From Macrocystis pyrifera (taxonomy: Eukaryota; Sar; Phaeophyceae; Laminariales; Laminariaceae): a DNA stretch of 64,000 bases. The stretch is from the NCBI GenBank assembly GCA_031763025.1, contig JASSKH010000019.1, positions 6,530,336 to 6,594,335 of the forward strand, written 5' to 3'. Below, piece by piece: positions 35,742-62,066 of the stretch. The notes under the pieces are model-generated. The model saw nothing but the letters and a program-made list of their open reading frames with translations. It had not been told where the DNA came from and did no database searches. The position numbers and the translations under genes were made by a program. The stretch's first letter is position 1. Each line of letters starts with the position of its first letter.

Positions 35742-36034
35742 ATAGCCCATCCTGGTCCACTGTCGCCAACTTAGAGGGCGTGCAGTGGAACAACATCAAT
35801 AAGTGATATTGCTCGCATGAAAAAAAAAAATACCAAGTCAATAGTATTAGTCAGACCCGAGAAAAAAATCATACAAAGTCAACAGCAGTGTCAGACCCTG
35901 AAAAAAAAATTAAAACCCACGACAACAATTCTCGTATCACAAAATATAAACCTATTTTGTACGTACCCTAATTGTTGTTCTCTGGTTTCAACTGTATACT
36001 CCTCCAACTATTTTTACTTTACCACCTCCTCCCG

Positions 36035-36182: not shown

Positions 36183-36333
36183 GGCCTATTACATTGTACT
36201 CCTCGCGTCCTATCTATTCCATTGATGGAGCATAGTTCTTGACACTCCGAGTCCTCTGGTGTACATGCCAGCACCACGATCCTCGCTCCTCGCTCACCGT
36301 TGTCAACGTCTCCTGAGATAGCCGCACGTTGTA

Positions 36334-38091: not shown

Positions 38092-39446
38092 CCACGGTCT
38101 AAGCAGCAGCGTACATAGGTCCTCACCGGCTCATCTCCCAGCAGCCTCTCATACTGTCCTGGGTTTCGGTTAGGGTGATCATCAGGGGCACGCGATGGGC
38201 GTCGGACCAGTAACTTTTCAGAGGTTGGAAGCTCCATCAATTCCCCTTGCGATACTATCCGTTTCAACTCTACTACGTCTATCCCCGGATCTAACCCTTC
38301 CTCGGTTATATCATTGCTTGGCGTTTGATTTTCTATGCACGTCATTGCTGTCTTAGCAGTATCATCCTTTTGTTGGGCAACCGCCCAGTCTTCCGCGGTT
38401 TTCTGACACAACTTTTCCCCGAAAGCGCACGCTGCTTCGCTGTCTAGTTCCTCATCTGCAAGTTCCGATGGTTCTGCTGCATTATTTTCCTGTCCTGTGC
38501 CTGCTGCTGCACCATCGTTGCTACCTCCCGTGTCTATGTCTATTACTGCCACACCCTGTTTCGAACCTGGGCCCAACAATTCCCTCCCCTCCTTGGTCAT
38601 CGGACATGCATGTAACACTAAACCGGGTTCTAGCTGACCGCTGAATACCTTACTCTCGTCAGGTTCACTTAACGGGCTGTCATCACGTATAACATACTCT
38701 CGCGGACTTCCATTTTGTCTCAACTGGTACGATTCTCGTTTTCTGCCTCGCTGCATCAACTGCCAGGATAGCTGAGCTTGCTCATCCGTTGTTCGCGGCG
38801 CTATTTTGTGCTCAATCTCTGTCTCATTATCTCTCACCTCAAAACTGTTGTCGGTACGACACTCCAGCCCACCCAAGCTGATGCCCCTCCCTCCAGTTGG
38901 TTGACACTCCAGCCCACCCAAGCTGATGCCCCTTTCTCCTTCGGTTTGACACTCCAGCCCACCCAGGCTGATGCCCCTCCTTCCCAAACTCGGCTGTATT
39001 CCACTGGCACCTATAAAGTAAACGTCCACATCCGTAGGGTCCGTCAGACGTAGGTTATCACAGGTTTCTTCCTCTGTTGCCGGCAATGGCAATCGGGACA
39101 TAAGGTCTGCGTTTCCATTCATTTTTCCCGGTCTATATACCAGTTTATAGCTGTACGCGCTTAGAAAATCAAACCATCTCTGTACGCGGTTAACTTTCGT
39201 GGCCAAGCTCTCTAGGTTTTTAAGCGGCTGATAATCGCTTATCACAATGAATGGTATACCGTAGAACAATTGCCGATTTTTCTTGGCTGCCCACACGATA
39301 GCTGCACATTCAAGCTCGGTGGTGCTCCAGTTTTTCTCGTTTGGGAGCGTCGATCTGCTCAAAAAACTAATCGGGCGAGTCGTACCGTCGCTCTGGTCTT
39401 GCTCTATCACTGCACCTAACCCGTCCGCAGACGCGTCTGTAATCAA
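38088..39446 (-). CDS. Gypsy RNase H plus linker, frame-shifted from RT
   Basis: This 452-codon frame starts inside the RNase H domain. It shows ITDASADGLGAV (first catalytic D), the ELECAAIVWA helix, VISDYQPLKNL (third D) and NADLMSRLP. RNase H removes RNA from the RNA-DNA hybrid during reverse transcription. After residue ~130 comes a low-complexity linker with three 15-residue repeats built on RGISLGGLECQ, then acidic, poorly conserved sequence of about 270 residues before the integrase. Such a long repeat-bearing linker between RNase H and integrase is unusual. The upstream ~170 bp to the RT frame is readable only in another frame, so at least two single-base-type shifts separate RT from RNase H. 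Confidence 0.85.
   Translation of the reverse strand: MITDASADGLGAVIEQDQSDGTTRPISFLSRSTLPNEKNWSTTELECAAIVWAAKKNRQLFYGIPFIVISDYQPLKNLESLATKVNRVQRWFDFLSAYSYKLVYRPGKMNGNADLMSRLPLPATEEETCDNLRLTDPTDVDVYFIGASGIQPSLGRRGISLGGLECQTEGERGISLGGLECQPTGGRGISLGGLECRTDNSFEVRDNETEIEHKIAPRTTDEQAQLSWQLMQRGRKRESYQLRQNGSPREYVIRDDSPLSEPDESKVFSGQLEPGLVLHACPMTKEGRELLGPGSKQGVAVIDIDTGGSNDGAAAGTGQENNAAEPSELADEELDSEAACAFGEKLCQKTAEDWAVAQQKDDTAKTAMTCIENQTPSNDITEEGLDPGIDVVELKRIVSQGELMELPTSEKLLVRRPSRAPDDHPNRNPGQYERLLGDEPVRTYVRCCLDRG
38859..38993 (-). repeat. Three in-frame 45-bp tandem repeats
   Basis: Units at 38859, 38904 and 38949 encode 15-residue repeats (GRRGISLGGLECQ.. type) in the linker between RNase H and integrase. 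The period is a multiple of three and the frame is kept. Confidence 0.9.
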
Positions 39447-39617
39447 CTGAAACGGCCGGTCACCGGAAATTGCTGCTGCAAATCGGGAAACGCCAGTACC
39501 TTGGGACTCGCTAGTTGCGATAAAAGGTCCTGCACTATTTGCGTATGTTCCAGAGTGAATTCAAACTTTACCCTCTTCTTCAGCAATGAGTTCAGTGTCT
39601 TTGTGACCGCGGCCATT

Positions 39618-41828
39618 TTAGGTAGAAACTTCCTGTAATACCCTACCCCTCCATGAGTGAGCGCAGCCGGCTAACATTTTGGGCATCGGCATCTTCAATA
39701 ATGCTTCTACTTTTCCAGGATCCGGTGCTATCCCCTCAGCCGTTACTCTGTGGCCCAAAAATGTCACTACCTTTACCCCTAGGTGTGCTTTCTTTGGTGC
39801 TAGTTTCAAATTGAAGATGGTGAGTCGTTCAAAGAAATTCCGTAGATCTTTGACATGCTCTTCTCCGTTTTTCGAGAAACAGACTATATCGTCAATAAAT
39901 AACCGCACTCGCTCCAACCCCTCGCATACGCGCAGCATGATTGACTGGAACCATCCTGGGCTCGATGCTAGGCCCATCGGCATGACCGTCCATTCCCAAT
40001 TTCCTGATTGCGTACACACTGCTGTCAAGGGAATATAGTCTTCATGTATTGAACACTGGAAAAATCCGCTCACCAAATCCATCGTACTAAAAACATGAGC
40101 TCCTCCTAAGTCAGCTAACAAGTCGTCAACCGTTGGCAACGGCAAAACTGGTATGACAGACTGCGCGTTTACCCTCTTGTAGTTACATGTGATCCTGATT
40201 CTACCGTCCGATTTCGCGATCGCCACCAAGGGGCTCGACCAATTGGAATATGATCTGCGCAATATTCCTGCCAACATCAATTTATCTATCTCTGTTTGGA
40301 CTTTTGCTGCCAGTACTGGAGAGTGACGGTATGGTCTCTGTTTGACTGGTCTCGCATCGCTTTTCAGTATAATGCGGAACGGGTCTACTGTGACATGTCC
40401 TAGATCAGTGCTGTGGTGCGAAAAGCGATGTTCGTAACTACACAGCAATTCTGCCAGAGCGTCAATATCTGCTACTTTCCACAACTCTTTTTCGAAATCG
40501 AAATTTATTTCGTGTAAATGTGGTGGTACCCTTTGCCACAATTTTTCAAAAGCTGCACGCTGATCGTCATCTAAACTATCCAAAACTTCTTGCGGGATTT
40601 CGCGAGGTTTTTTCGTTTCTGCAGCTTCTACTGCATTAATCTCTCCAGACAGGGTGGGTAGTAGCTGTGCTTTTGTCAAATCACTCTTGACTAAAGGTGC
40701 ACCCCCTACTCCCAATTTCATGTCTGGCATCATTACGTGTGGTTGATGTCCCGTATATCGTAGCGGGATTTCAGAGGTACCGGCCTCTACTATAGCTTCC
40801 CGGGGCAACCAGCCTATGTTAAATCGTATATAGTACATACCTTCGGACGCCGCCGTGCCGTCTGTATTAGTGATATCGACTTTAACCCATGCCATCCCGT
40901 TCGGAAGTGTACATCGTTTTCCCGAAAAACGTGCAACCACCACTCCCTTGGTGCTAGTTTCTATTAATCCTACTGTGCTGTTGACCCAATCAGAATACCT
41001 TTGTGTGTTTTCAACGGTCCCACTCTCCCGTACTGTAAACGTCACCCTTGTTTCTTTGTCGTTTATGTCAACATATTTTCTGGTTGGAAATTCCGCCCAA
41101 CCATCCCGTCCTAAAAGTACTTCATGAGTCATCGCCTCATTTGGTACAACGTGTGCATATACCACCAAGCAAACTGTCTGTGCTCTCCCATTCTCTGAGG
41201 ATATCCCCTTTTCTCCTCCCATCTGAACGTTCAATCGTACTCTGCTGTTTGTGGTTAAAGGTATACCATGAAATCCTCCCCATTTTCTTTCTGGTATTTC
41301 TGTTAACCCATTTCTAGAAGCTGCCCCGCATCTCAACATATGTTGCCATACCTTGCGTTGGATGAAAGAAGATGGGCTCCCAGTGTCCAGCAGTACGGTG
41401 CAGTTTTGTGTACGCGTAGCTTTGGATCCTCCAAAAATCTGTGCTCGTGTTGTACGACGCCTTTTGTCCAACGTCACCTCTCCTCCCACGGCACGCGTAA
41501 ATTCTGGCAGGTAGTCTGCTCGTTCCCCACTCTCGATCTCCTCCTGGCGCAGTGGGAAAACGTTGAGTAGCGTTTCACTAGTCAGGTTTTGCTTGGGTTC
41601 GAGTGCATATATGCTGTCTGGCATTCCTGGCTTGCTCGAAAATTCTCCCCCCTGAACGCTGCTACTTCTATCAATGCTCGGTGTATTTGAGGTCATGCTG
41701 GATACATCAACATTTTGTTCCGGTCGCTTTGCCGACTGTCGCTCAAATATGGTTGGCATTATATCTACTTCCGTACTAGTTTTCGCTCGCAAGCGTCGTA
41801 CACTCCTTTCTGTGTTTCCACTTACCAC
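39618..41828 (-). CDS. Gypsy protease and reverse transcriptase
   Basis: This frame has 736 codons. The retropepsin motif LLDTGSPSSFI is at residues ~146-156 (catalytic D148), with the second hallmark VLLGRDGW further on. RT runs from about residue 490. It has the R/K-rich start (PVKQRPYRHSP), the SSPLVAIAKSDG.IRITCNYKRVN block, FSTMDLVSGFFQ with the first catalytic D, MPMGLASSPGWFQ, and the active-site box LFIDDIVCFS (D646, D647), a form of the usual Y/F-x-D-D. The frame ends abnormally after PMPKMLAG, where RT thumb sequence resumes in another frame. Upstream the frame is open past the given start into a 91-bp duplication, so it was originally continuous with gag. Confidence 0.93.
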   Translation of the reverse strand: MVSGNTERSVRRLRAKTSTEVDIMPTIFERQSAKRPEQNVDVSSMTSNTPSIDRSSSVQGGEFSSKPGMPDSIYALEPKQNLTSETLLNVFPLRQEEIESGERADYLPEFTRAVGGEVTLDKRRRTTRAQIFGGSKATRTQNCTVLLDTGSPSSFIQRKVWQHMLRCGAASRNGLTEIPERKWGGFHGIPLTTNSRVRLNVQMGGEKGISSENGRAQTVCLVVYAHVVPNEAMTHEVLLGRDGWAEFPTRKYVDINDKETRVTFTVRESGTVENTQRYSDWVNSTVGLIETSTKGVVVARFSGKRCTLPNGMAWVKVDITNTDGTAASEGMYYIRFNIGWLPREAIVEAGTSEIPLRYTGHQPHVMMPDMKLGVGGAPLVKSDLTKAQLLPTLSGEINAVEAAETKKPREIPQEVLDSLDDDQRAAFEKLWQRVPPHLHEINFDFEKELWKVADIDALAELLCSYEHRFSHHSTDLGHVTVDPFRIILKSDARPVKQRPYRHSPVLAAKVQTEIDKLMLAGILRRSYSNWSSPLVAIAKSDGRIRITCNYKRVNAQSVIPVLPLPTVDDLLADLGGAHVFSTMDLVSGFFQCSIHEDYIPLTAVCTQSGNWEWTVMPMGLASSPGWFQSIMLRVCEGLERVRLFIDDIVCFSKNGEEHVKDLRNFFERLTIFNLKLAPKKAHLGVKVVTFLGHRVTAEGIAPDPGKVEALLKMPMPKMLAGCAHSWRGRVLQEVST

Positions 41829-41830
41829 GT

Positions 41831-42006
41831 TACCAGTCCATGAGTTTTTCTCTTCTACTGGCGGGGGAAAACTCGCGGGCTTTGCTGGGTAGACAAGGCG
41901 TCGCTCCCCTATTCTCTACATTACCAGTCCATGAGCTTTTCTCTTTTACTGGCGGGGAAAACTCGCGGGCTTTGCTGGGTAGACAAGGCGTCGCTCCCCT
42001 ATTCTC
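41831..42006 (-). repeat. 91-bp tandem duplication disrupting gag-pol
   Basis: Units start at 41831 and 41922 with TACCAGTCCATGAG and contain CTTTGCTGGGTAGACAAGG. They differ by a few substitutions and by a G run of five versus four. Since 91 is not a multiple of three, the duplication itself shifts the frame, and the shorter G run ends the upstream frame at once. Confidence 0.85.
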
Positions 42007-42410
42007 ACCTCCCCGGGCTCTAAAACTGTTATCGGTGGGGGTATTTCTCTCTTCAACTGTACATTTGAAGCAGGCGTGCCCTTCGCCCTGTTGACAGCAG
42101 ACATTGGCTCCTTTTTGGTATGACTCTGAACCAACACACTCAACGAATTAACGTTGCTTCGAACTGGCGTTTTTCTCGGTAGCTTACACCGTATCCTTAC
42201 GCCGTCCGGACGGCCAAGCCCACCCGCTAGCCAACTACTAACAGTGACGGAGCTTGTGCAGAGGGGTGGTATTGGGGTGGAAGCGCACGATCGGACGTCG
42301 GGGTAATTACTTCCGCTCTCTCCAGAAAGACGACAACCAACTACGCCTCCACTCTTACCGTTAATAGGTAGATTGTATCCTACCCCTTGACTTGGATTCG
42401 CGTTGTGCAC
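41946..42410 (-). pseudogene. Gypsy gag-pol linker region, frame-broken
   Basis: This frame of 154 codons lies between the gag zinc knuckle and the protease. It is serine/proline-rich with no recognised domain. It reads directly into the 91-bp duplication, ending in YPAKPASFP, the same residues that precede the protease frame on the other side. This shows it was once continuous with it. Unlike the second gypsy segment in this window, it contains no NADAR domain. Confidence 0.6.
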
Positions 42411-42578
42411 CGCGGCTCCCGTCGTAACCTTCCTTGCATTCGATGATGCTGAGAGGGCCCCCCCTCTTTCTCCGGACTCCCTCCTCCCGGACGCTCCTTG
42501 ATCTCTGTGTGGAAAAGAAACAAGAAACGGGGACCGCTATGCTACCGGCAAGTCGACCTCCTCCTTACCGTTGCAGCT

Positions 42579-43378
42579 TCAGATTTCTCCTCTTTCGCGG
42601 GCATCTATGCGGTTTGCGTGCCATTGGCACAACCGCTGTTGCCACCTTCGCCAACGCCTCCTTACCTCTTCCGGTGTGCCTTCTCCTATTTCAGGGTTTA
42701 TAATTTGGGATCGATTCATATATGCAGCAGGACAGTCTCTTGCAAAGTGTGTATCTTCCGCACAATTTAAACATCTCGGACCAAAGGCTCGGCGTGCAGC
42801 ATCTTTGGCTTCCCTCGAATCATATCTGATATAGAATGCAGGTTCTTTATTACTTTTTCCGAAGCCCCCTCGGCTCTGTAATACCGTATAAACCTTCTCA
42901 AATTCCATATTCTCATCCTGATAATCAGCCCCTCTCTGATGCCGTCCTCCTCTTTGGACCGTTCCTGGTCCTTGCCAGGGCTCATGCCTTCCTTTTTGGG
43001 CAATTTTGCACTCCTTCCACTCGGGGAGAGTGAGGGTGCATTGCCAGATAGGTGGCGTGCAAGTCTCTCCGCCTTAGGCTCATTCTTGACCATCAGCGTC
43101 GTGTCAGCTGCTACAGCAGCAGTGTGGGCCCCCCCCACGTCCGGTGCTTGGCCCTTGCCAGCACTATCGGATACCTCGTCCGGTGCTTGGCCTTTGCCAG
43201 CACTATCGGACACTACTTCGGGGCCCTTCGCTTTGCTAACCCTGGCGGAGCGCCTAGGCGTGGCCACGGGCTTGAGTCCTGAGTCTTCTTTCCTCCCTCC
43301 AGATTTCGTGCTGGGTTGGTACGACGACATACTTGTACGTGTTTTCTTACTTCTCCGGTCGAACGCTAGCTCTGCCAA
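42579..43378 (-). pseudogene. Gypsy gag with one zinc knuckle, frameshifted
   Basis: Two minus-strand frames make up gag. 42767-43378 (203 codons) is basic and serine/proline-rich with a short repeat (DSAGKGQAPD twice). 42579-42908 (109 codons) holds the knuckle CLNCAEDTHFARDC (C-x2-C-x4-H-x4-C, about 42732-42773). The second frame remains open upstream through a charged segment, so the break lies near 42930. Gag forms the particle and binds RNA. After the knuckle the sequence INPEIG...RRRWRRWQQRL is shared in form with the second gypsy gag (LNPDLG...FRRWQERM near 48740-48800), indicating related lineages. The protein seems short for a gag, and no capsid fold could be recognised. Confidence 0.7.
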
Positions 43379-43382
43379 GTCC

Positions 43383-43400
43383 TAAAGCCGGACGACGCCA
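43383..43400 (-). promoter_or_regulatory. Candidate tRNA primer-binding site of the gypsy element
   Basis: On the minus strand, TGGCGTCGTCCGG begins one base after the 5' LTR. A primer-binding site should start TGG, complementary to a tRNA CCA end, at this spot. I cannot say which tRNA would match. Confidence 0.4.
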
Positions 43401-43401
43401 C

Positions 43402-44053
43402 TGAAAGGATAACAGTTATTGAAACTGTCACACTCTTAGACTGGAAGGGTAGCTTCCAGAGTTTAGATGATAGTTCGAACAGGCAGAGACGCAGTGGTCC
43501 AGGTCAACGAGAAAGAAGAAGAAGAAGAAGTTTTCGTGTATTAAACTCAGCGCGATGAGAGGCAAGAAGTGGACTGAACAGGAAGGGGCAACCACAGATG
43601 GTCCTTCCTGTCGGTAGTTCTACCTAACTGCTTCAAGGTATTCATCTACAAGAGTCATTACCTTGCTCATACTCTGATCTATATTACTCGTCTCTGTATC
43701 TGCTACCGGCCAATGATCGACAACCTGACTACCGACATCCTCTCTAGACTGTCACTCTCTCGGGAAACACTCTCTGCTATTGGTTACGTACTCGACTAGT
43801 CTCCAAGTAATCTGTCCTACTGCTACTAGTACTATTTTCTACAGCAACAGCCTTTGCTATCACAGAATAGTCAGTCCAACAGCAGTCTTACTCATAGTAC
43901 TCGCTCATACGTACGTCAGTTAGTTCTCTTACCACAGCAGGCCAGAGTCAGTCTCCATGTCAGGTATATCCTGGCATGAGAGGCTGACCTTTCTTTGCTA
44001 CATCCCCGGCTATGTACCGCCTCCGAATACTACTGAAACCCAATAGCACCTCA
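43402..44053 (-). repeat. Gypsy 5' LTR
   Basis: 652 bp, the partner of 35090-35741, with TG...CA ends and outside CACT. It is the 5' LTR because the coding strand is minus and gag lies next to it. Confidence 0.92.
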
Positions 44054-44420: not shown

Positions 44421-44676
44421 TGTTCGTTTGGATCGTTCCAGTAGCGACGGTTACAAGTTGTAGAGGGTTGCGTATATCTTCGCAGGCGTTATTATGAATT
44501 ATGCCGTGTGTTCACGAGGAGAGTTTGAGCACTCCGTTCTCTGCTCCGTTCTCTGCTCCGAGCTACGAGCTAGGCTCCGCTCTCTCTCCCGTCCTCTGTC
44601 CTCTAATACAACGATTATAAAGAAACTCATCTGACCACGTGGTGGTCAGGGCATCCAGGCTTGGACTCTACGAACA
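44421..44676 (+). repeat. Copia-type 5' LTR
   Basis: 256 bp with a 6-bp terminal inverted repeat TGTTCG...CGAACA. It contains direct TTCTCTGCTCCG repeats, a TATAAAG box and a palindrome GACCACGTGGTGGTC. Confidence 0.92.
44616..44647 (+). promoter_or_regulatory. LTR promoter elements: TATAAAG and CACGTG palindrome
   Basis: TATAAAG lies at 44616-44622 and GACCACGTGGTGGTC at 44633-44647. The palindrome is unchanged in the right LTR (53015-53029) while the TATA-like box has changed there. CACGTG is the core of the G-box/E-box bound by bZIP and bHLH factors; a promoter role is inferred. Confidence 0.4.
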
Positions 44677-44701
44677 CACTAGTACTTGAACGTTTGAGGT
44701 C

Positions 44702-44716
44702 TGGTACCAGAAGCCC
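44702..44716 (+). promoter_or_regulatory. Possible initiator-tRNA primer-binding site
   Basis: TGGTACCAGAAGCCC resembles the TGGTATCAGAGCC primer-binding site common in copia elements. It lies 25 bases inside the LTR edge, further than usual, so it may be coincidental. Confidence 0.35.
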
Positions 44717-44719
44717 ACG

Positions 44720-47187
44720 ATGCCCTCGAAGGGATCGGCTCAAGAAGAGCGCGACTCTTCAAATGACGTTGAAACGCTGCGACGCGAGATCGAACTGGCG
44801 ATGGAGAACAGCGAGGCGTCGATGCTGAACGCCATGAGGGAAATGATGGCCGAGTTCATGAGGAACAACGGTCGATCGGAGCCAGGCAGCGCTGAAGGCA
44901 GCGTTGCTGTAGGAGAAAGTCCAGCAGAGGTAGGAACCACTGCTGTAGGGGAAAGCCCAAGAGGGGCAGTACCCACTGCTGAAGTACGAGAGACTACTGC
45001 TGCTGTTGAAGCAGGCATTGGTCGATTGGAGTCCGGCAGCGCTGGGGGTAGCGCTGCTGTAGGGGAGAGCCCACAAGGGGCAGTACCCACTGCTGTAAGA
45101 GAGATTGCAGCAGAACAAGAGACAAATTTGCGTGAGGGCGCCTCGCCAGATTTGGGAGCAGCTGGACGCGGAGGAACTGCGTTGCCTGTCGAGGTTGGCC
45201 CACCGAGGGGTCATCCAGACCAGCATGGGACTGCGTTGCCTGTCGAGGTTGGCCCACCGAGGGGTCATCCAGACCAGCATGGGAGGACAGGAGGATGGGG
45301 TGCATACCCTAGCGGTGAGTTGGGTGGTGGATTTGATCTGCCTCAATCGCGCCATTTGGCCTTCAAACACACTCCTGTGCGATCGTTTAGTGGGTTAAAA
45401 TCTGAGTTCAACCCCTGGACAAGAGACGCTCGGTATTACGCCAAAGGAGTTGGTTTCTTGTCTGCTTTCGTGTCGGATCCGCCACAGTACATTCCCGTAG
45501 GGGAATTAGACACCGAAAACTCGATGCTTGTCGCTAGGGGGTTTAGCCGCGAAAGTGTGCACAGGCATACACTGGCGTGGAATTTCCTGTCGACGGCCCT
45601 CATGAGCAAGAGCGATAAAAGCATTTTGCACCGGTGTACCTCGCCGAGGAAAGCGTGGGACGCTCTCCTTGCGTGTTACGGCCCTCAGACGACGGGGGCC
45701 GAATCAGACCTCTCCCGACGCCTTAACAGTTTTAAGATGACGCCGGGGAACAACCCGCTCGAGGAGATGGGCAGGATCGAGGATCTTGCCGCGGAAATGC
45801 GAACAGCAGGAATGTCAGTAGACGACCACATGCTGTACACCATCTTTATTGACGCTCTGCCTGCCGATCACGAAGTGGAGGCTCGGAACCTGGCATCACG
45901 TGACAGCATCGGCCGTGATGACATCATCAAGGCTGTTCGAGAACGGCATCACCGACTTTCTGGAAACAGGAAGAAGGGGTCCAACGCTGGCCACGCAGGC
46001 CATGCTATGTACCCCGGCGGCGGCGGGGGTGGCGGTGGTCGCCGGAAAGGTGGAGGAAATGGCAAAGAAAAAGGTGGACGACGGGGTCACGGACGAGGCG
46101 GTAGAGGCTCCAACGAGGACGGTGGAGGCTCGGCCGCGGCTGCTGGTGGCAATGGCAGCAACGCCAAAGCCGCTAGCGGAAGTACTCCAGTGAGCAAGTG
46201 TCATAGGTGTGGCAAGAAGGGCTATTGGAGGAGCGAGTGTACGGCGAAGCTATGCAGTCGATGCCAGGGATGCGGGCACTCTGCCGATGCCTGTCCCACG
46301 TCCACGGATCGATGCAGTCGATGCAACGGGCTGGGGCACGCTGCTGATGTCTGCCCCTCATCGAAAGAAGAGTTTTTTCCTGGTGCGAAACTCCCGGCCA
46401 CGACGTCGTTGTGGGCGGAAGCGTCCCACTGGACGTGTGACGCCTTGAACCGCACAGCAACAACAGCTAACCCGCAGAGCAAGTCGCCGCATGAGATGTG
46501 GCATGGTAGCCCCCCGGTAGTACTACTGCCCTTCCTAAAGCCTGGCTATTGCAAGGTGAAGAGGGAAAACAAGTCACAGGCGAAAGCGCAAGAATGCTTT
46601 TACCTCGGCCCTGCAACAAACTACCCCGGAGATTCAGTAAGAGTGCTGACAAAGAACCGCACTGTGCTAATAACGCACAATGTCACCTGGCAACGCGTGT
46701 CGCCTGCACCACCTGTACTTGCCCAGGCGAATGACTCCCTGTCTACGGAAAAGGGGGGGTCAGAGGCAGACGACGTGAGCACGTCGGATCGAGGTGGTGG
46801 GGGGGTGGTGGATGAGCTGGACGACGGTCTGGCTCACTTGAACGACCTCGACGTGACGTGGGGTTTTGACCTGGACGCGTTTATGCAGGAGCGCGCACAG
46901 CAGGCACCTGCCGGCGGCGAGACCGGCGGCGAAACACCCGAAGCGATGGGTTCGTCTCAAGGGGGCGCCGTGGACGCCTCCTCGGTCCCGACAGGGAGGA
47001 CCGAAACAGCCGAGACGATGGATTCGTCTCAAGGGGGCGCCGTGGACGCCTCCTCGGTCCCGGCAGGGAGGGCCGGAAGCGACTCGGGCGCAGCATCAGC
47101 CTCCGACACCGGGCAAGGGGACGGTGAGGATCCCCCCGCGGTCCTGTCGGGAAGGCCAGCACACGAGCTCAGCAGCTGGGGCCGGCT
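44720..47187 (+). CDS. Copia gag fused in frame to integrase C-terminal region
   Basis: The frame begins with ATG at 44720. The N-terminal ~210 residues are low complexity, with repeated VGESP blocks and an exact 18-residue repeat (GTALPVEVGPPRGHPDQH). Residues ~215-425 resemble the copia gag core (HTLAWNFLSTAL, RKAWDALLACYG, RLNSFKM, YTIFIDALP). A Gly/Arg-rich stretch and three zinc knuckles follow. The first, CHRCGKKGYWRSEC, has Y where the metal-binding H should be; the other two are intact. Directly afterwards comes LPATTSLWAEA...KSPHEMWHG and ECFYLGPATNYPGD, the end of copia integrase. Protease, the HHCC module and the D,D,E core are missing, yet the frame stays open. The frame remains open to 47452, but RT-related sequence switches frame near 47188 at a C6 run. 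Confidence 0.85.
45176..45283 (+). repeat. 54-bp tandem repeat in copia gag
   Basis: Two units (45176-45229, 45230-45283) with no visible differences encode an 18-residue repeat in frame. Confidence 0.9.
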
Positions 47188-47572
47188 CCCCCCGACTGTA
47201 CGGGGCATACGCGCTGCTTGCGGCAGCGTACGAGTCGTGGACGAAGCCTGGGAGTATGCTGGATCGTACGCCCTGGACGACGGAGGACGCAGTGGCTTTG
47301 ATGGCCGGAGGACCTGCTGTGGAGAACAAAGGGGAGTTGAGCGTGTGCATGCCGAGTGGTTTCCCGGAAGACGTAGAACCACCCCCACAGACCGTAGCAG
47401 ATGTAGAGTGTTCTCAATACAAAGCGGCGTGGCACGAGGCCATGGAAATTGAGTTGGACGGTCACAAAACGACCGGTACGTACGAAGCCGCGACACCGCC
47501 AGAAGGGCGGAAACCTGTAGATGCGAAGTGGGTGTTTACCTACAAGATGGATAAGGATGGCTTGATCTAACC
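47188..47572 (+). pseudogene. Start of copia reverse transcriptase, truncated
   Basis: In the frame shifted from gag, YGAYALLAAAYESW... leads into KAAWHEAMEIELDGHKTTGTYE and GRKPVDAKWVFTYKMDKDG. These are the hallmark first blocks of the copia-type RT (RVT_2): W..AM..E...H...T.E, P.G.KPV..KWVF..K...DG. The next expected block (KARLVAKG) and the YVDD active site are absent. The sequence stops at LI-stop and changes to gypsy gag. No polymerase could be made from this copy. Confidence 0.85.
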
Positions 47573-47574
47573 TT

Positions 47575-49104
47575 GCTCACAACCGAACTTCGGCGATCGA
47601 CTCCGCCGCCGCCACCGCCGCGAAACAGCACACTGCCGACGTCCAACGGGCGTACAAACGCCTGGGACTGAAGGATATTTTTTCCGCATTTCTGTCCTAC
47701 CTTTCCCCTCCTCGATCGACCCTTGCGAGGCCACGCAGCAACTCACGCGTTCGGTCAAGGCCTCCGCCTCTGATATTCTAATGATGTGCAACGATGGCAG
47801 CCATGAAGGCCTTAGTTCTACTAATTGGATCCCCGGTTGGGAGTACCCTCTTAAGAAATCCTTCGCGCGCGCCATCACGCCTGACAAGCCTACGACCGCC
47901 CCTCTCACTACCTTGATGGATGATTTGTTTGGACAGGTGTCGCGCGCCCTCGCATCAGGATCGACGGGACCGGAGGCGTTCACGCTCCTCCTGAGGTTGC
48001 TGAGCAACCACTTCGACCGCACCAACACGGGGGCCTGCTACACCAAGTTGCATAATTTTGGCGTGGCTAACGGGACCCCTTTTTGCGATTTTAGTCGTGG
48101 TGTCCGCAGCGACGGGGACTGAGCGTGTTTTGGCGCCGGGGGTGGGGGTTGTTTTGGAGGTAGTTCGGATGGCAGTGAACGAGCCGTACCCTAGCTTGAT
48201 GCCCACGCTGTACCCGGGAGTTTTGGCTACGGTATCGAGGCCGTTCGACACTTTGGACGCCATGTGGTTAGCTTTCGAGACTCTTGAGAATAACAAGACA
48301 CCTGCCGTCAACGTCGAAAAATATTTTTCATTGCCTGCTTCTTCGACGGGTGCGCGGTCATCCGCCCCGTCGGGGCCCCGGCCCGCCAATATTGGTCGCG
48401 GCCAGGGCCGGACGCTTCCCCAGTCGCCTTCTTGGCAGACGGGATCGCGTAATAATCCGCTTGTAATGAATGTCCACAAATCCATCCCTGACTGCCTCGA
48501 CCCGTGGCTTGACACCTCTTCCAACTGCTGGCCCCTTGAAGAACACCACTATGCCGAAGTTCACGCCGTTTGCATGTCCATCCAGACCGAGGACCCTCCC
48601 CTCTGGAGCGGCCCACTTTCATCGTCCGCTTGCGCAGCCGCCCTCAGCGAAAACCGAGAACGCTGTTTAAACTGTCACGAAGACACACACTCTCTTCAAC
48701 AGTGTAGACACCCCTTTTGAAACCTTGGTGGTATCTTGAACCCCGACCTCGGAACGCTCGGCGACGACGGCGAGGCGTTCCGTCGTTGGCAAGAACGCAT
48801 GATCAGACACCGCCGCGAGAACAATTCACGACCGAACAAACACAACCAGAAGAAACACAGGCGTCGTCCCGGCCACTCGAGTGGGCAACATCACGGCCAG
48901 GGTCAGCAAAACAGACAAGGTGACGGCTACAACACACACGTGGCACAAAGACACCAGCAGTCTCACTCCGGCCATCATGGTGGTTCGACCGCCTCTACCT
49001 CTTCCGCCCCGGCTCCCGTCTCGGGGGTTCGCTACGGTGCCTCGCAGACCTCGGGCGGAAACCCGAATGGACGCCAGCCGGGCACCTTCCGCGCCGGAAA
49101 CTGA
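47575..49104 (+). pseudogene. Second gypsy gag with zinc knuckle, disrupted
   Basis: Gag-like sequence is spread over shifted plus-strand frames. A first piece lies near 47595-47700 (AAATAAKQHTADVQRAYKRL), then 47781-48122 and 48058-48720, with breaks near 47.7 and 48.1 kb. The last ends in the knuckle CLNCHEDTHSLQQC (48663-48704), followed by an in-frame TGA at 48718-48720. The same frame then continues to 49104 with LNPDLG, FRRWQERM and a Gln/His/Gly-rich, basic tail. The knuckle (CLNCxEDTH) and the following NP-xx-G...RRWQ pattern match the gypsy gag at 42.6-42.8 kb. No LTR precedes it; it follows copia RT directly. Confidence 0.7.
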
Positions 49105-50146
49105 CAGGTCGACGGCGGTTCGGCTCCTCCTGCCCGCCCGCCGCCAGCATTGTCGGGAGAAAAAACCTTGATTTCACAAGATGCTCGCGTCCCAGGCTCG
49201 CTCAGTACTCCGCTTCCGCCCCGCGCGTTACTCCGTATTTCGGACCGACGCAGCGACTCAGCTCCGCTGCTTTCTCCGGGGAGCCCCCGGGCGCCTTCCC
49301 CGACGTCGGGAGCCCGCGCCTCAAACGCCGCTCCCCTCAACCTGGGCACGAGAGCAGGCGCGATAAACGCCTCTCTCCCGAACCACGCACCGCGCAACAC
49401 GACGGGTGTCGCGCCGTCGCGTCGTTTTTTTTCAGCGAGGGTGTCCCCCTCCTACACCTCCCGGCCATGCGGTGGCGGTCGGTTTGAGGTGCGGGAAGGC
49501 AAACACCGAAAACCCGAGATCTCGGTTGAAGCTCGACTCGGCGTTTCCTTGCAATAACGGTGGCCGCTCCACCCTTTTTCCTGTTAAGGAGGAGTCGACA
49601 AGATTAGCTACCTCGTCCCCCTTCCCCACCAGGTCAACAGGACGGAAGCCCTCTCCGGTGGACCCTTTGTTGCCCCCCACCCGAGCACCGTTCTTGAAGA
49701 CGTCTACAGGGTCTGCAGGCCCTCTTTCGTCTTCGCGCACGCTACTCCACGTACGCAGCGCTCCTTCGGCTCCAGTTGAACAGGAAAAACCTGGCACTGT
49801 CCGTCGAGCCAGTGGTGACTCTATGGCCTCCGGTCAGATCAACTGGACAGCATCCCCGTTAAATTCGGAAGAAGAGTCGCAGCTTTCGTCAAGCAGAACG
49901 GGCTCAGAACCCCCTGCCCCCTTTGGTCCAGGACAGAGATCATCGGGCGCAGCAAGAGAACCTTCTGGCGATTTTTTGCCTACGGGCAATGGTGACACAG
50001 AGCCAGTATACGTGAAACCGGACTCGTCTCGTGCACCGGGGGCTCAGTGTTCTCAGAGAAGCACACCCCCCCCCCCACACGCCGCAACTGCGGCCACCGA
50101 CGACTCGGCACCGTCGGTCTTTGACCCTACTCTCGAGTATACAACG
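49105..50146 (+). pseudogene. Ser/Pro-rich linker between gypsy gag and NADAR
   Basis: Plus-strand frames 49150-49557 and 49406-50146 are open but low complexity (Ser, Pro, Arg, Gly) with no recognised domain. The change of frame is near a T8 run at ~49424. Codon composition is GC-rich like the flanking gypsy segments. The second frame leads without interruption into the NADAR domain. Confidence 0.5.
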
Positions 50147-50610
50147 GAGCGGGTGGTACTGTTCTGGCAGCCCCCCTCTTATTTTTCGCAGTGGCCTCCC
50201 TCGTCTTTCGTCATCGACGATGTGTCATATTCCTGCGCGGAGCAGTATATGATGGCTGAAAAGGCATCGCCTTTTCCTGGACCACGGCACAGCGGAGCAG
50301 ATTATGGCCTCGCCAGACCCACGCGAGCACAAACGCCTCGGTCGAGGCGTGCATAACTTTGACTGTTTTTTCTAGGACCGTGCTCGGGAAGACGCCGTCC
50401 TTGCTAGTAATTTTGCCAAATCCTCGCAGAACCCGGTCATGGAGCAGCATCTATTGAGCACTGGCACCAAAGGTTTGGCTGAAGCCAGCCTTTTTGATGC
50501 CGTGTGGGGCATCGGTCTGCGGGCAGACGACCCCGAAGCTCACGACTCCTCTCGGTGGCATGGAAAAAATTTGCTCGGGAAAGCTCTTTCCGCCGTTCGC
50601 GACACCCTCC
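50147..50610 (+). pseudogene. NADAR (YbiA-like) domain inside a gypsy pol region
   Basis: About 154 codons match the NADAR family, whose characterised bacterial and plant members act on ribosylated intermediates or ADP-ribose-type groups. The first half (to ~50276) reads VVLFWQPPSYFSQWPP, then CAEQYMMAEKA, the family's central EQxMMxxKA block. The second half (50280 on, another frame) has a GTAEQIM segment, a REHKRLGRGV segment and NFAK, followed from 50439 by WGIGLRADDP and W.GKNLLGKALSAVR, the C-terminal hallmark. One frameshift (50276-50280) and one TAG (50373-50375) break it. No other disabling change is obvious. It sits between gag and protease, is absent from the other gypsy element here, and could be a captured host or viral-type gene. 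Confidence 0.8.
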
Positions 50611-50689
50611 GACCACGTGAGGCCGGGTTGGCACACCCCGCCTCCTCTCATCAATTCTGCACCCCAACCAGACCTGAAAATATTTACTA

Positions 50690-51777
50690 ATGAGGTTACA
50701 CCAGCGCCGCCCCGTCCTTTGGCCGTAGCCCGCGCTTGCCCAGGTCCTCCTTTGGAGTTTTCGACCTATTTGTCTGACGCGCCGGCTGATCACAGCCCCG
50801 AGATTTTGGCTGTCGCACCTAGTATCGAACCCTCCCTCGTGCTGCCAGAACACGGCCCCTGCCTCGTCGGGGGCACCATTACCCTCGATGACGCCTCTTT
50901 TACAACCAAAATCACGATTCACAGCGGAGCTGGCGTTCTTGTACCTTTGGATTGCGTGGCGCTTCTTGACACTGGCTCCCCGCAGACTTTCATCCGACGA
51001 GATGATTTGGATCGCATGCACTCGGTTGGTGCGGCATCCCTCGCGTGCGAGCAGAAAGGCGCCCCTCGTTCTTGGGGTGCTTTTGGCGAATCGGCCCCTC
51101 TGAAGACTTCGACGAGTGTGCGCCTGAGCGTCCAATTTTTTCGAGAAAATGAGCCTACTTGCTCCCTCGTAGTTTGGGCCTGCGTGGTCCCCCCCTCAGT
51201 GATGCAGCATGCTGTACTATTGGGACGTGACAGCTGGATGCGTTTTAATAGCCGCTGCTACCGCTCTCTGCCACCTCGGCCGTCTGATCAACGCGTTTTT
51301 GGCGAGCTGGAGCTAGTTCACCACGCCCCGACAGGCATGTCCGTGTACGCCATCGACTCCGCCGCTTCGGTCGGAGGCTTCCATCTACGCTACGAGGGCG
51401 CAGCAGGCGTCACCCTGTCCGACGATCCCCAGCTGCTTGCTACTAACTTGGTTCGAAGCGATGGCTCCCCGGCCCTCACTGGACACTACGTGGTCGACAT
51501 GATGCCCCAGCCCGACCTACCCTCGGTCGAGGAGCACTTCGTCTCCTCCGGACGACAGGTTCTTCCCCTCGTTGGAGTGGCGGCTCTCGAGCCTGGGTAT
51601 GTCCTCGGCGTCGCCCACGCCCCACTGCTGAGCGTCCCGCTGGACGTTTTGCAGCAGGACAACCGAGCCCCCCCAGCCCTCCCTCCGGACTATGTGAGGT
51701 GTGTCCGGTATCAGCAGTTACTGCCCCCCCCCTCGCAGCTCCAGCCTCGCCCTCGCCTGCACGGCTTGAGCGTTTGA
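50690..51777 (+). pseudogene. Second gypsy protease region
   Basis: The frame (open from ~50494 to 51777) contains the retropepsin motif VALLDTGSPQTFI and the later AVLLGRDSW, spaced as in the other gypsy element (LLDTGSPSSFI, VLLGRDGW). Both share further blocks, such as S.VRL.VQ and VV.A.VVP. About 180 residues follow before RT. The frame is shifted from NADAR upstream (between ~50610 and ~50700). It ends shortly after a C9 run at ~51724, where RT continues in the next frame. As assembled the polyprotein is broken on both sides. Confidence 0.8.
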
Positions 51778-52193
51778 CCTCAGAACAGTGCGCTTCGTTC
51801 CTGCGCGTCTGGGCACGCTTGCCGTCACATCTGCGGGAGGTGGCTTTTGATCTCCACGGCACAGGCTGGACCCCTGCGGTCATCGAACAGCTGGGGGACG
51901 TTCTCTGCGAATTTCCTGACGTTTTCTCGAAGTCCAAGTCGGATTTTGGTTCCTGCTCGTTGATGCCTTTCGTGATCTCGGTCCCGGAAAGAAGCGCTCC
52001 TGTCACGTCCAGGCCGCACCGCATCAACCCCATCCTGACCAAGGAAGTGGAGGCCACCTTGGATCAGTACCTAGCGGCAGGTCTGATCCAGCACTCGACT
52101 TCCCCGTACTCGAGCCCGCTGGTGGTCATCCCGGAGAAGCCTGGAGGCGTTCGGATCACCGTGAACTACAAAAAACTCAACCAGATCAGCCTA
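51735..52193 (+). pseudogene. Start of second gypsy reverse transcriptase, truncated
   Basis: The frame 51699-52286 includes a pre-RT segment (ARLPSHLREVAFDL, CEFPDVFSKSKSDFG) and the first RT blocks: VTSRPHRINP, EVEATLDQYLAAGLI, SPYSSPLVVIPEKPGG and VRITVNYKKLN. After NQIS the match stops. The palm blocks with the catalytic aspartates are missing. The next bases belong to copia RNase H in a different frame, so the remaining codons of this frame are read-through. Confidence 0.85.
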
Positions 52194-52195
52194 AG

Positions 52196-52487
52196 TTTTG
52201 TTTACAGGCGCGGTGTTGTCGTTTATTCGTCCAGAGCTAAGCGGATCATGTGTCCAGGTTTTCGAAGGGGGCATAGCGTTGGCTGAAAACCCTCATAGTT
52301 CTGCTCGGAGTAAGCATATCGACGTGCGTATTCATTTAGTCAGAGAGATACTTCGTGCTAAGAAGGTCGACATTCAGTTCGAGCTTCGGAAGAGCAGCAC
52401 GCGGACATTTTGACGAAATCCCTTGCTGCGACCCCTCTTAAGTCTCACCGTAGATTTTTGTTGAATCTGCCTTTAGAGGGTGAGTAA
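52196..52487 (+). pseudogene. C-terminal end of copia RNase H
   Basis: GGIALAENPHSSARSKHIDVRIHLVRE is the classic copia RNase H C-terminal block (A.AL..NP..H.RSKHIDIR.H..RE). It is followed, after a one-base frame change near 52395, by EQHADILTKSL and a short tail ending at the stop near 52486. It restores the 3' end of the copia element begun at 44720 and fixes the second chimera junction at about 52193-52200. Confidence 0.88.
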
Positions 52488-52786
52488 GGGGGTAGCAGCA
52501 TTATTCGATGAGTACCATGTTTGAGTGACGCGAGGAATAATTTGTCAGGTCGCCAACCCTGCGCTACTTTGAGGGGCACGGGTTAGTAGGGCACCGCTTG
52601 TCATTTTATTTTCTGGCCATGGTCATCGTTTGGAATGCGGCCGTTGTTTCAATTGCAATGGTTTGGCGTATATGTGTCATACAGGGGGTTTTGACTCGGT
52701 GGCCGGGTTTCCTTCTGCGGGACTGTCGTTGGCTGTACTTACGTCCTAGCAAGTCTTGAATGCCGTTTCGATCTCGTCACTGCTGT

Positions 52787-52802
52787 GAAGAGCCAGGGAG
52801 GA
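52787..52802 (+). promoter_or_regulatory. Candidate polypurine tract
   Basis: Purine-rich AGAGCCAGGGAGGA directly precedes the right LTR, where the plus-strand primer of reverse transcription is expected. Confidence 0.55.
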
Positions 52803-53058
52803 TGTTCGTTTGGATCGTTCCAGCAGCGACGGTTACAAGTTGTAGAGGGTTGCGTATATCTTCGCAGGCGTTATTATGAATTATGCCGTGTGTTCATGAG
52901 GAGAGTTTGAGCACTCCGTTCTCTGCTCCGTTCTCTGCCCCGAGCTACGAGCTAGGCTCCGCTTTCCCTCCCCTCATCTGTCCTCTAATACAACGACTAC
53001 ACATAATCTCATCAGACCACGTGGTGGTCAGGGCATCCAGACTTGGGCTCTACGAACA
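52803..53058 (+). repeat. Copia-type 3' LTR
   Basis: 256 bp, TGTTCG...CGAACA, aligned end to end with 44421-44676. About 15 differences, clustered in the last third. Confidence 0.92.
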
Positions 53059-59663: not shown

Positions 59664-62064
59664 AATGCAATGCCATGTCATCATACTGCGTACGACAGGC
59701 ACGACATACACATTCCATGACCTAGAGAAACAAAAACGAAACAAAGAGAAAAAACAAAAACAAAAACAAAGACAATTCGAAAGAGAAAAGAAACAAAAAA
59801 AGAAACTAGATATACCTGGTATATGTATATACTTCAGTATAGCAGCAAACCATCGTACCCCCACGTAGGGGACGTGGCAGACACTTGAAAAGAACCGAGC
59901 TGGAAAAAAAAAGAAAAAAAGAAGAAAACACCACTAGTCGTCAACAGAGTAAGACTAAGAACCAAGGGAAAAATAACAGGCAAACCAAACAAAGCACAAG
60001 GCATGCTCCAGGTAGCGGCAGCAGTTTATGGTACGAGTAGCACAGCCAGGGTCTCCCTGCTGGCCCGCCTGGTACCTTGTTACCCTGTCTGCCACCATCG
60101 TCCAGCGTTCGTCAACTATGCCCGGCCCCTCGGCGTCAGACAGTACGAAACAAGCAGAGCAGGCTCGTCATCCACCCACGCCACACGACTCCTTCAATAA
60201 GGCTTATCAATCGGAGAAAGGAAGAGAAATGAAAATCACATAGGGTCACCGCAAAGAAGACAATAAAATGAAATAAAAATAAACAAAAACAACAGGAAGA
60301 CAAAGGAAGACCACGTTCGAACCAGCTGCACCAGTTGGTGGTACGAGTAGTATAGGCATCTTCTACTTCTTAGTCTGCCCGGTACCTGGCTACCCTATCT
60401 GCCATCTCCTTCCTACTTTCGTCCACTGCAGTTTCCCTGCTACTCCTCTTCCCCCCCCTCTCCGCATTCCCTTGGTCGGGTTTTCTGCTACTCCTCTTGT
60501 TGCCCCTCCTCCCCCCATTCCCTTGGACACCACCCACGGCGGATGCGCGGCGCTGCCTGCTCAGCTCAGCCTCAGCCTCGTGCCACCTCACCATGAACCG
60601 TTCGGCTGCTTCCAGGATCCCCCGGTACCACTTCCCCGCCTTTTTTGCAGCAGTGGGCCACAGTGCGGTCTCAACTCTCCAAACACCAAGGGAGCAAGTT
60701 CCGTTGACCCTTCGGTGGCGCGGAACTCCCTAAGGTCTTCGACTACGCATCTATGCCAAGTCTTAACCTGTCCGCCAGGTCTCGGGTTCTCCCCACCAGC
60801 AATCGTCCCGAACATCACCCGGCTGGGTAATCGATCCTTGCTTTGCCGTGCCACCCCCCCCGCGAAGAAGAGACGCCGTTTGCGGATGGTCGTTTCGATG
60901 CTCTCGCAACGTGTCATCTTGAGGGCCTTCGCGTACGAGAGGGTGGCATGGTCAGTACGAAGTCGGCGTTGGAAGCCAATGGCTCGCAGCAGGACTTGGT
61001 GGTGAGCCGTTCGAAGCTTGGCAAAGTGTTCCGCTCTGAGGGTCCACGTCACACACCCGTAGAGCAGGGTCTCAATTACCTCGGCCTTCAGCATTCGGAC
61101 TTTCAGGCTAAGGGGGGCGGTCGTCCTATCATACAGCTCCGGGCCGAACCGTTTGAGGCATGCTCGCATGAGACGGATCCGTCGGTCGATTTCGAGCGAG
61201 AGGTCAGCATTTTCGTGGATAACGCCGCCTAGGTACAAGAACTGGGCCGTCTGCTTATACCTCTGGCCTGCTGCTTCGATAACGAGCGGTGGTGCGAGGG
61301 TTTTCTGGTCTGGCGTTTGTAGAAGCATAGTCTCTGCCTTCTTTTCCGACACCGTAAGGCCTGCTGCTTCGAAGACAGTCACGATGACTGTCATCATTTT
61401 CGCGAGCCCTTCAGCCGACTTCGAGACAATCCCTGCGTCATCGGCGTACAACATGCCCCATACAGCCCTTCGCACGTACGCCAACGGCTCCTGCTCCTTC
61501 GTCCCGACTACTCCAGCATCACTAAGTTGGACCAAATCCCTTACGATTGCTTCGTCATGGCTGAAGCGTACTAGTACGACGTGCAACGCAGCAGCGAAAA
61601 ATACGTTGAACAGTAACGGTGACAGCACACAGCCTTGCCGCAGCCCCTGCGTGACATCAAACCATTCCGAGTGCTCGCCGTCATCCGTACGCACGCGAGC
61701 CCGCATGCCATCGTGGAAATTACGGATAATTCTCAGCATCTTGGTTGGTACGCCAAAACGTGTGAGTACTTCCCATAACAGCTCTCGGTCGACAGAGTCG
61801 TACGCTTTCTGCAGATCGATGAAGCACAAGTACAGGGGGATTTTCCTCTGTCTTCCAAGCTCTTGCAACCGGCGCACGACGAACAACATATCAATCGTTG
61901 ATCGTGCGGGGCGGAAGCCGCACTGTTCCTCCGGGAGTAATTCCTCGGTCTCGCAGTAGTTGCTGAGGCGCGACGCGACGATTTTCAACAAGACTTTGCC
62001 TGCGTGGGCAACCAGCGAAATCCCTCTGTAGTTGTTGCAATCAGTTCGGTCCTGCACAGTGAGC
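59664..62064 (-). mobile_element. 5'-truncated LINE, copy 1
   Basis: This non-LTR retrotransposon on the minus strand includes RT, a C-terminal region and about 700 bp of A/T-rich 3' sequence. The 5' end is lost within the first RT block, so no endonuclease domain remains. Its truncated 5' edge abuts the 3' edge of a second copy at 62065. Both share the 3' word AATGCAATGCCATG (59664, 62065). 5' truncation is the usual result of target-primed reverse transcription. Confidence 0.85.
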
Positions 62065-62066
62065 AA
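60370..62066 (-). pseudogene. LINE reverse transcriptase ORF (copy 1)
   Basis: The main frame (60588-62066, 492 codons) begins in RT. It shows [40 protein letters not shown] with the first catalytic [17 protein letters not shown] and the active site LYADDAG (D209, D210). The C-terminal part has LLYGC.TWTL and [16 protein letters not shown], like the RRLRWxGHVxR segment common in this LINE group. A two-base insertion near 60676, compared with copy 2, shifts the end. The correct frame continues through [14 protein letters not shown] to 60370 as a charged tail. The protein would copy element RNA at a nicked target; without endonuclease and N-terminus it is inactive. Confidence 0.88.

What the first reader, a model, noticed from the sequence alone, without database searches (positions are those of the whole stretch)
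50147..50610. A NADAR (YbiA-like) domain embedded between gag and protease of a gypsy retroelement
Seen: blocks CAEQYMMAEKA and WGIGLRADDP...NLLGKALSAVR in the right order and spacing for a ~150-residue NADAR domain, flanked by a gag zinc knuckle and a retropepsin motif in the same orientation. Known: NADAR proteins act in riboflavin-pathway clean-up and on ADP-ribose-type modifications. Inference: the element captured an enzyme, perhaps to remove or resist an ADP-ribose-based host defence. The related gypsy element at 35-44 kb lacks it. Only one frameshift and one stop break it. I do not know whether this combination is already described.
Basis: partly seen in the sequence, partly recalled or inferred. 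Interest (0 to 1): 0.88.

Follow-up and report, generated by a model that had tools for sequence, protein, structure and literature searches.

The report
Enzyme domain inside algal retrotransposon polyprotein
A family of jumping genes in brown algae carries, between its capsid and protease parts, a bacterial-type enzyme domain known elsewhere for stripping ADP-ribose off DNA; the window holds a broken copy, the combination was published in 2025 for another brown alga, and what the enzyme does for the element is still untested.

Summary
Pfam NADAR matches both halves (27 and 77 bits); a family-specific profile tiles 50132-50630 and finds nothing else NADAR-like in the window. Gag with a zinc knuckle lies before it, a protease block and the start of RT after it. 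One frameshift and one stop break the domain.
It is no chance insert. Among 120 listed relatives found by protease alone, 49 of 49 whose frame reaches 140 residues upstream carry NADAR. The window's genome (537 Mb; a brown alga by its EsV-1-7 repeats) has 150 of 150 scored NADAR loci over the cut-off; of 20 sampled, 19 have the protease behind it. Catalytic residues are kept (74 of 86 relatives).
The combination is already in print: Ectocarpus Gypsy-12_Ec32 lineage (PMC12477816; passages). This is a new member in a second brown-algal genome. Not mentioned in the passages seen: an amplified derivative without most of RT and RNase H that keeps NADAR (9 of 20 sampled); and the window copy is a 4.6-kb gypsy patch inside a copia element. 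Function remains inferred.

The parts
47566..52190 (+). Fragment of a NADAR-bearing Ty3/Gypsy element (gag to start of RT, no LTRs), sitting inside a copia element
   Evidence: Aligns over 4.6 kb with own-genome copies at 94.3-94.7% (L169, L170, L176) and over 3.7-4.1 kb at 93.4-94.9% (L172, L182); edges, good to about 2 bases
47685..49101 (+). gag remains, in two frames
   Evidence: Match to the gag part of P0253 (a gag-NADAR ORF of a relative): 81, 70 and 27.5 bits
48664..48705 (+). CCHC zinc knuckle of gag (C-X2-C-X4-H-X4-C)
   Evidence: Read from the sequence; motif recalled from general knowledge
50132..50630 (+). NADAR (YbiA-family) domain, broken by one frameshift and one stop
   Evidence: PF08719 27.1 and 77 bits; family profile 63, 29 and 108 bits
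50758..51657 (+). Retropepsin-like protease block (LLDTGSP motif) and following segment
   Evidence: 269 bits to P0276; 43-82% identity to the 120 listed hits
51705..52190 (+). Region before RT and first part of RT; truncated
   Evidence: 177 bits to P0276 residues 490-648
44421..44676 (+). 5' LTR of the copia element that hosts the gypsy patch
   Evidence: 256 bp, 241 of 256 identical to the 3' LTR
44690..47566 (+). copia internal part: gag, then remains up to the start of RT
   Evidence: Retrotran_gag_2 47.4 bits; RVT_2 start 10.8 bits, under its cut-off; 47300-47566 matches other places at 97%
52193..52802 (+). copia RNase H tail and 3' region
   Evidence: 52193-52480 matches other places at 91-92%; reading as RNase H tail by eye
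52803..53058 (+). 3' LTR of the hosting copia element

Best explanation
The window holds a decayed piece of a Ty3/Gypsy lineage of brown algae in which a YbiA-family NADAR domain is a standing part of the polyprotein, between gag and protease. Shown: presence throughout the testable relatives, fixed position, conservation like the protease, mostly kept active-site residues, many copies. Inferred (about 0.75): the domain is an active ADP-ribosyl hydrolase. Inferred further (about 0.35): made as part of Gag-Pol and so carried with the element's RNA and cDNA, it removes ADP-ribose from guanine bases of the element's nucleic acid (RNA template or single-stranded cDNA), or from nearby proteins, so that adducts left by cell enzymes do not block reverse transcription or integration. 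The particular copy in the window is dead: frameshift, stop and truncation, and it sits as a patch inside a copia element.
For: Profile hits. Protease-anchored search: 49 of 49 relatives with 140 or more residues upstream of the protease carry NADAR, 57 of 60 with 100 or more, among 120 listed of 213. Most of NADAR, RT and RNase H in one 1178-aa ORF in P0276 and P0284; gag, zinc knuckle and most of NADAR in P0253. Active site by the numbering of P. nicotianae NADAR (PMC11543638, section read): E43 82 of 86, K50 107 of 110, E125 118 of 125, all three 74 of 86, in proteins with NADAR and protease in one ORF; all three in 28 of 30 distinct own-genome copies with an unbroken domain. Pairwise identity of NADAR 0.68 and protease 0.69 (91 pairs), linker 0.54 (91), upstream 0.52 (78), from 14 of 30 representatives. 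dN/dS between the two own-genome subfamilies about 0.17 for NADAR and 0.20 for protease (dS saturated). P. nicotianae NADAR, YbiA family and not tied to DarT, hydrolyses guanine-linked ADP-ribose (passages).
Against: No activity, expression or packaging was tested. 12 of 86 relatives lack one or more of E43, K50, E125. Recent variation gives no significant sign of selection: shared versus single variants N:S 13:12 versus 85:37, Fisher p 0.105 in subfamily A, no sign in B. Copies used for dN/dS were largely chosen by NADAR score or NADAR DNA, and only unbroken domains were counted, which favours conserved NADAR. R93, an ADP-ribose contact, is Cys in 90 of 114 relatives. P0121 and P0132 show no NADAR match with 100 or more residues upstream. 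Host ADP-ribosyltransferases could not be surveyed.
Confidence: 0.6

Rival explanations
1. Chance insertion of a host or bacterial NADAR fragment into one gypsy copy.
For: The window copy is broken, and the neighbouring gypsy element at 35086-44053 lacks the domain.
Against: Relatives found by protease alone carry it in 49 of 49 testable cases; 150 of 150 scored loci in the same genome, 19 of 20 sampled followed by protease.
Confidence: 0.01
2. NADAR works on RNA: processing or repair of the element's RNA intermediate rather than counter-defence (the suggestion of PMC12477816, which cites NADAR in RNA viruses).
For: Printed hypothesis (passage); NADAR is embedded in polyproteins of positive-strand RNA viruses (PMC9503650, passages); C. 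[quoted passage not shown]
Against: No substrate shown; the best-tested activity of the family is on guanine-linked ADP-ribose in DNA.
Confidence: 0.25
3. The domain has become a structural or binding module (ADP-ribose or nucleic-acid reader, Gag-Pol spacer) without catalysis.
For: Placement in the gag-protease linker; R93 contact lost in many relatives.
Against: E43, K50 and E125 are all kept in 74 of 86 relatives and in 28 of 30 unbroken own-genome copies; a binding module need not keep both catalytic acids.
Confidence: 0.15
4. It acts on small molecules (riboflavin-pathway intermediates or free ADP-ribose derivatives) in the host cytoplasm.
For: NADAR proteins have such proposed roles (PMC11125620 introduction; PMC9503650 passages).
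Against: A Gag-Pol-fused copy made in small amounts is an unlikely source of bulk metabolite clean-up (inference).
Confidence: 0.08

Closest known systems
Ectocarpus Gypsy-12_Ec32 lineage (Genome Biol 2025, PMC12477816)
   Same: Ty3/Gypsy of a brown alga; [quoted passage not shown] Gypsy-12_Ec32 is also given as an example with a putative C-terminal chromodomain (passages).
   Different: Another genome, 537 Mb against about 197 Mb implied by the paper's 55.2 Mb = 28%. I could not align to the Ectocarpus sequences; the paper's figures and supplements were not seen. The RT-less amplified derivative is not mentioned in the passages I saw.
Oomycete (Phytophthora nicotianae) NADAR, PDB 8bau
   Same: Best match among solved structures for a relative's intact domain, E 8.3e-19; same main active-site residues. 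That 8bau is this protein is inferred from matching residue numbers, offset by two.
   Different: Not part of a retroelement as far as the paper's passages say.
DarT1-NADAR (DarTG1) toxin-antitoxin systems
   Same: NADAR fold and guanine-ADP-ribose hydrolysis as the presumed chemistry.
   Different: BC4488 family with Asp in place of E125; here Glu. No DarT hit in the 17 window ORFs scanned with Pfam.
NADAR in nidovirus and other RNA-virus polyproteins; Tx1 LINE ORF1 of oyster
   Same: Other captures of NADAR by RNA-based replicons (PMC9503650 passages; PMC12477816 passage).
   Different: Different replicons; not compared by sequence here.

Membership tests
NADAR superfamily (PF08719) | Match over the Pfam cut-off (35.1 bits) | tested here: met
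   Window C part alone 77 bits, N part 27.1. Of the relatives scanned, 16 score 118-166 bits and P0191 (partial) 56.5; P0174, P0121, P0091 and P0184 gave no NADAR hit
YbiA family of NADARs | Glutamate at the E125 position (Asp in BC4488, His in phage gp30.3) | tested here: met
   Glu in the window C part; 118 of 125 relatives; 30 of 30 unbroken own-genome copies
YbiA family of NADARs | E43 and K50, largely conserved over the superfamily | tested here: met
   Both in the window N part; 82 of 86 and 107 of 110 relatives
YbiA family of NADARs | Hydrolysis of guanine-linked ADP-ribose | not testable with these tools
   No assay possible
DarTG1 antitoxin | Asp at the E125 position, next to a darT gene | tested here: not met
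   Glu instead; the neighbours found are gag and protease; no DarT hit in 17 window ORFs
Ty3/Gypsy (Metaviridae) elements | Order PR-RT-RNaseH-IN | tested here: met
   Own-genome copies show GAG, NADAR, PR, RT, RH, IN in this order, e.g. L170, L176, L178 as oriented; the window piece itself ends in RT
[quoted passage not shown]
   NADAR position met. The region after IN matches its counterpart in the window's other gypsy, but Pfam found no chromodomain there. Ectocarpus sequences not available to align
Brown-algal host | Expanded EsV-1-7 repeats | tested here: met
   150 of 150 scored PF19114 matches over cut-off, 1585 candidates; 0 of 14 control genomes. That this points to brown algae is from a passage of PMC12477816, which also names giant viruses

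The most novel reading that the evidence does not exclude
A retrotransposon lineage carries its own eraser of nucleic-acid ADP-ribosylation, packaged with its genome, against a brown-algal defence that ADP-ribosylates guanine in foreign or reverse-transcribed nucleic acid; derivatives that threw away reverse transcriptase and RNase H still keep the eraser because it must act in cis on their own RNA or cDNA.
Probability: 0.15. Interest if true: 0.85.

Novelty: new member of a known kind. Interest (0 to 1): 0.45.

Why it matters
Eukaryotic roles of NADAR and of reversible nucleic-acid ADP-ribosylation are little known. A retroelement lineage in which the hydrolase site is kept in most relatives, and in which the domain is as conserved as the protease, gives a concrete place to ask what is being de-ADP-ribosylated during retrotransposition and whether algal cells mark foreign nucleic acid in this way.

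Tried and rejected
Chance insertion in one copy: rejected. A DarT-linked antitoxin: rejected (Glu at E125). Donor: a tree of 154 rows (36 labelled retroelement, 115 of 160 fetched viral and bacterial loci after removal of near-copies, 3 others) puts 34 retroelement NADARs together (98/89) with one Deltaproteobacteria MAG (L081, 54% identity) as nearest outside row (98/86); P0118, a long-branch metagenome row with protease, falls outside, and one clade of the 35 is not rejected (p 0.32). The 160 loci are the best 80 of 86 viral and the best 80 of 170 bacterial candidates. A bacterial donor is therefore likely, but cellular eukaryotic NADARs were hardly sampled (of the 3 others only P0088 bears an organism name). 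In one search I wrongly labelled P0074 as retroelement; by eye it looks bacterial, and it was left out.

Structure prediction of P0202 gave mean pLDDT 42.8 and was not used. No LTR pair was found within the 20 ten-kb stretches, presumably because the elements are longer. Selection tests on recent copies were too thin. In one search the residue positions were off by one; one search repeats it correctly. Counts include short proteins whose retroelement origin is not shown one by one; the report uses.

Chimera as a spreading hybrid family: not seen; each copia-gypsy junction was spanned only by the window among 40 scored places, of 1244 and 1006 candidates.

Not answered: host PARP and DarT families.

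Full report
WHAT IS THERE. The stretch 50132-50630 encodes a YbiA-family NADAR domain on the + strand. Pfam PF08719 scores 27.1 bits for the N part (under the cut-off of 35.1) and 77 bits for the C part. A profile made from relatives scores three pieces with 63, 29 and 108 bits; among the stop-to-stop ORFs of 25 aa or more of the window, both strands, nothing else matches. One frame change and one in-frame stop lie inside the domain. Upstream, 47685-49101 matches the gag of a relative (81, 70 and 27.5 bits) and has a CCHC knuckle at 48664-48705. Downstream, 50758-51657 matches the protease block of a relative with 269 bits, and 51705-52190 the region up to the first part of reverse transcriptase with 177 bits.

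WHERE IT SITS. No LTR belongs to the gypsy piece. It lies inside a copia element with 256-bp LTRs (44421-44676 and 52803-53058; 241 of 256 identical). The left edge is at 47565/47566 and the right edge at 52190/52193. Left of it the copia part matches other places at 97%, right of it at 91-92%; the gypsy part matches other gypsy copies at 93-98%. Each junction is spanned by the window alone among 40 scored places, of 1006 and 1244 candidates. In ten copia copies that appear in both lists the two flanks lie 1054 to 1058 bases apart (my subtraction of the positions), so about 1.05 kb of copia was replaced by 4.6 kb of gypsy. Copy-choice between co-packaged RNAs, or repair from another template, would give this; that is inference.

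THE HOST. 150 of 150 scored EsV-1-7 repeats are over the cut-off, with 1585 candidates, and 0 of 14 control genomes ring. [quoted passage not shown] So it is very probably a brown alga, and by size not Ectocarpus.

LINEAGE-WIDE PRESENCE. I searched 5.8 billion proteins with the protease ORF, cut so that it held no NADAR (213 hits among the 7995 candidates sharing most words, 120 listed). Of the 120 listed, 49 have a frame that reaches 140 or more residues before the protease block, and 49 of 49 have NADAR there; with 100 or more it is 57 of 60. Of the three exceptions, P0144 starts in what looks by eye like the end of NADAR; P0121 and P0132 are unexplained. A NADAR search among long proteins (175 hits, 120 listed, the query itself among them) gave 120 of 120 with NADAR by my profile and 101 of 120 with the protease block in the same ORF; of the other 19, 16 end within 91 residues after NADAR, and 3 have 165, 202 and 247 residues without a match. 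P0276 and P0284 hold most of NADAR (their ORFs start inside it), RVT_1 and RNase H in one frame of 1178 residues; P0253 holds gag, zinc knuckle and most of NADAR (its end is missing).

OWN GENOME. PF08719 gave 150 scored loci, all over the cut-off, among 1264 first-look candidates; the true number is at least 150. I took 20 of the 150, about every seventh row down to about the 134th, as 10-kb stretches. 19 of 20 have the protease after NADAR (L174 does not), 10 of 20 have a gag match before it, 10 of 20 an RT match over 100 bits, and 18 of 20 an integrase match. Two subfamilies appear: A (7 of 20), to which the window belongs (83-91% protein identity to the window's C half), and B (13 of 20; 46-49%). 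The window's NADAR is 93-95% identical in DNA to the 39 other scored places, of 485 candidates.

AN RT-LESS DERIVATIVE. Compared with L178, 9 of the 12 other B copies of the sample lack the same 1173-bp stretch, with the same edges in L178; it holds RT beyond its first part and nearly all of RNase H. Of the other three, L188 lacks nothing there, L185 lacks a different, shorter stretch, and L174 matches only up to 5190. The nine keep NADAR, protease, integrase and the region after it; one of the nine (L181) also shows gag in the stretch. Shared edges mean one deletion that was then amplified, presumably with enzymes supplied in trans (inference). The length is a multiple of three in L178, but frames differ between individual copies. 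Keeping NADAR in such copies fits a role in cis, but protease and integrase are kept as well, so this is not specific.

IS THE ENZYME SITE KEPT? PMC11543638 (section read) gives the ADP-ribose contacts and catalytic residues of the P. nicotianae NADAR; the PDB chain 8bau matched runs two residues ahead of that numbering, which is how I placed the sites. In proteins with NADAR and protease in one ORF: E43 82 of 86, K50 107 of 110, K75 106 of 112, R79 106 of 111, W89 111 of 114, E125 118 of 125, D130 121 of 126, W133 124 of 127; E43, K50 and E125 together 74 of 86. The Y84 site is Phe in 109 of 114, and R93 is mostly Cys (90 of 114) with Arg in 18. In the own genome, of 47 loci 36 have an unbroken domain, 30 of them distinct; 28 of these 30 keep all three, and 30 of 30 keep R93. 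The window's halves keep E43, K50, R93, E125, D130 and W133.

CONSTRAINT. Mean pairwise identity among 14 of 30 representatives: NADAR 0.68, protease 0.69, linker 0.54 (91 pairs each), upstream 0.52 (78 pairs). dN/dS (Nei-Gojobori, pairwise medians): A against B 0.17 for NADAR and 0.20 for protease, with saturated dS; within A 0.37 and 0.36; within B 0.45 and 0.83. Duplicated places were in that set (36 NADARs, 30 distinct), pairs are not independent, and the copies were chosen by NADAR score or NADAR DNA, so NADAR is favoured. Variants shared by copies against single ones did not differ significantly: N:S 13:12 against 85:37, p 0.105; in B no sign. Long-term constraint is well supported, recent constraint is open.

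ORIGIN. In a tree of 154 NADARs, 34 retroelement rows group at 98/89, with a Deltaproteobacteria MAG as nearest outside row at 98/86. P0118, from a metagenome, lies outside on a long branch without good support (83/12); one clade of the 35 is not rejected (p 0.32). This agrees with the paper's remark that searches outside Ectocarpus found almost exclusively bacterial hits. Cellular eukaryotic NADARs are nearly absent from my set.

WHAT IS KNOWN. PMC12477816 (Genome Biology, 29 Sep 2025; [quoted passage not shown] So the combination is not new. Searches of the held library for NADAR with retrotransposon (104 papers, 20 listed), NADAR domain (15), YbiA with retrotransposon (1) and Tx1 with LINE and NADAR (2) showed this as the only paper on NADAR in retrotransposons that I could recognise from the listings. 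PMC9503650 (passages) reports NADAR in RNA-virus polyproteins and argues for removal of host ADP-ribose adducts; the word retrotransposon was not found in its main text.

HOW IT PROBABLY WORKS. Fused in Gag-Pol, the domain would enter particles with the RNA and the enzymes. Characterised relatives hydrolyse ADP-ribose from guanine. The simplest reading is an eraser that keeps template, cDNA or partner proteins free of ADP-ribose. Whether the writer is a defence enzyme, a repair enzyme or chance chemistry is unknown; my searches for PARP and DarT families in the host did not complete.

VERDICT. Real, a standing part of its lineage, probably an enzyme, already described in Ectocarpus: a new member of a known kind. 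The second genome, the residue counts, the RT-less derivative and the chimeric state of the window copy are additions from this work, as far as the passages I saw go.

Noticed in passing
35086-44053 (minus strand): A gypsy element with 656-bp LTRs 98.9% identical (35086-35741, 43399-44053), RT, RNase H and integrase hits and no NADAR: a young element of another gypsy lineage beside the NADAR fragment.
   Followed up: partly
44421-53058: A copia element in which about 1.05 kb was replaced by a 4.6-kb gypsy piece without LTRs; both junctions found only here among the 40 places scored in each search.
   Followed up: yes
L173, L175, L177, L179, L180, L181, L183, L186, L187: Nine own-genome copies of subfamily B share one 1173-bp deletion that removes most of RT and RNase H but leaves NADAR, protease and integrase: an amplified RT-less family.
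   Followed up: partly
60588-62081 (minus strand): ORF of 497 aa with an RVT_1 hit of 117.5 bits, a further retroelement whose class was not determined.
   Followed up: no
protein P0118: A metagenome (JGI) ORF of 738 aa with NADAR before the same kind of protease, on a long branch outside the other retroelement NADARs: possibly a deep sister lineage or a second capture.
   Followed up: partly
protein P0121: A relative by protease with 130 residues upstream and no NADAR match; may be a member that lost the domain, or a frame artefact.
   Followed up: no
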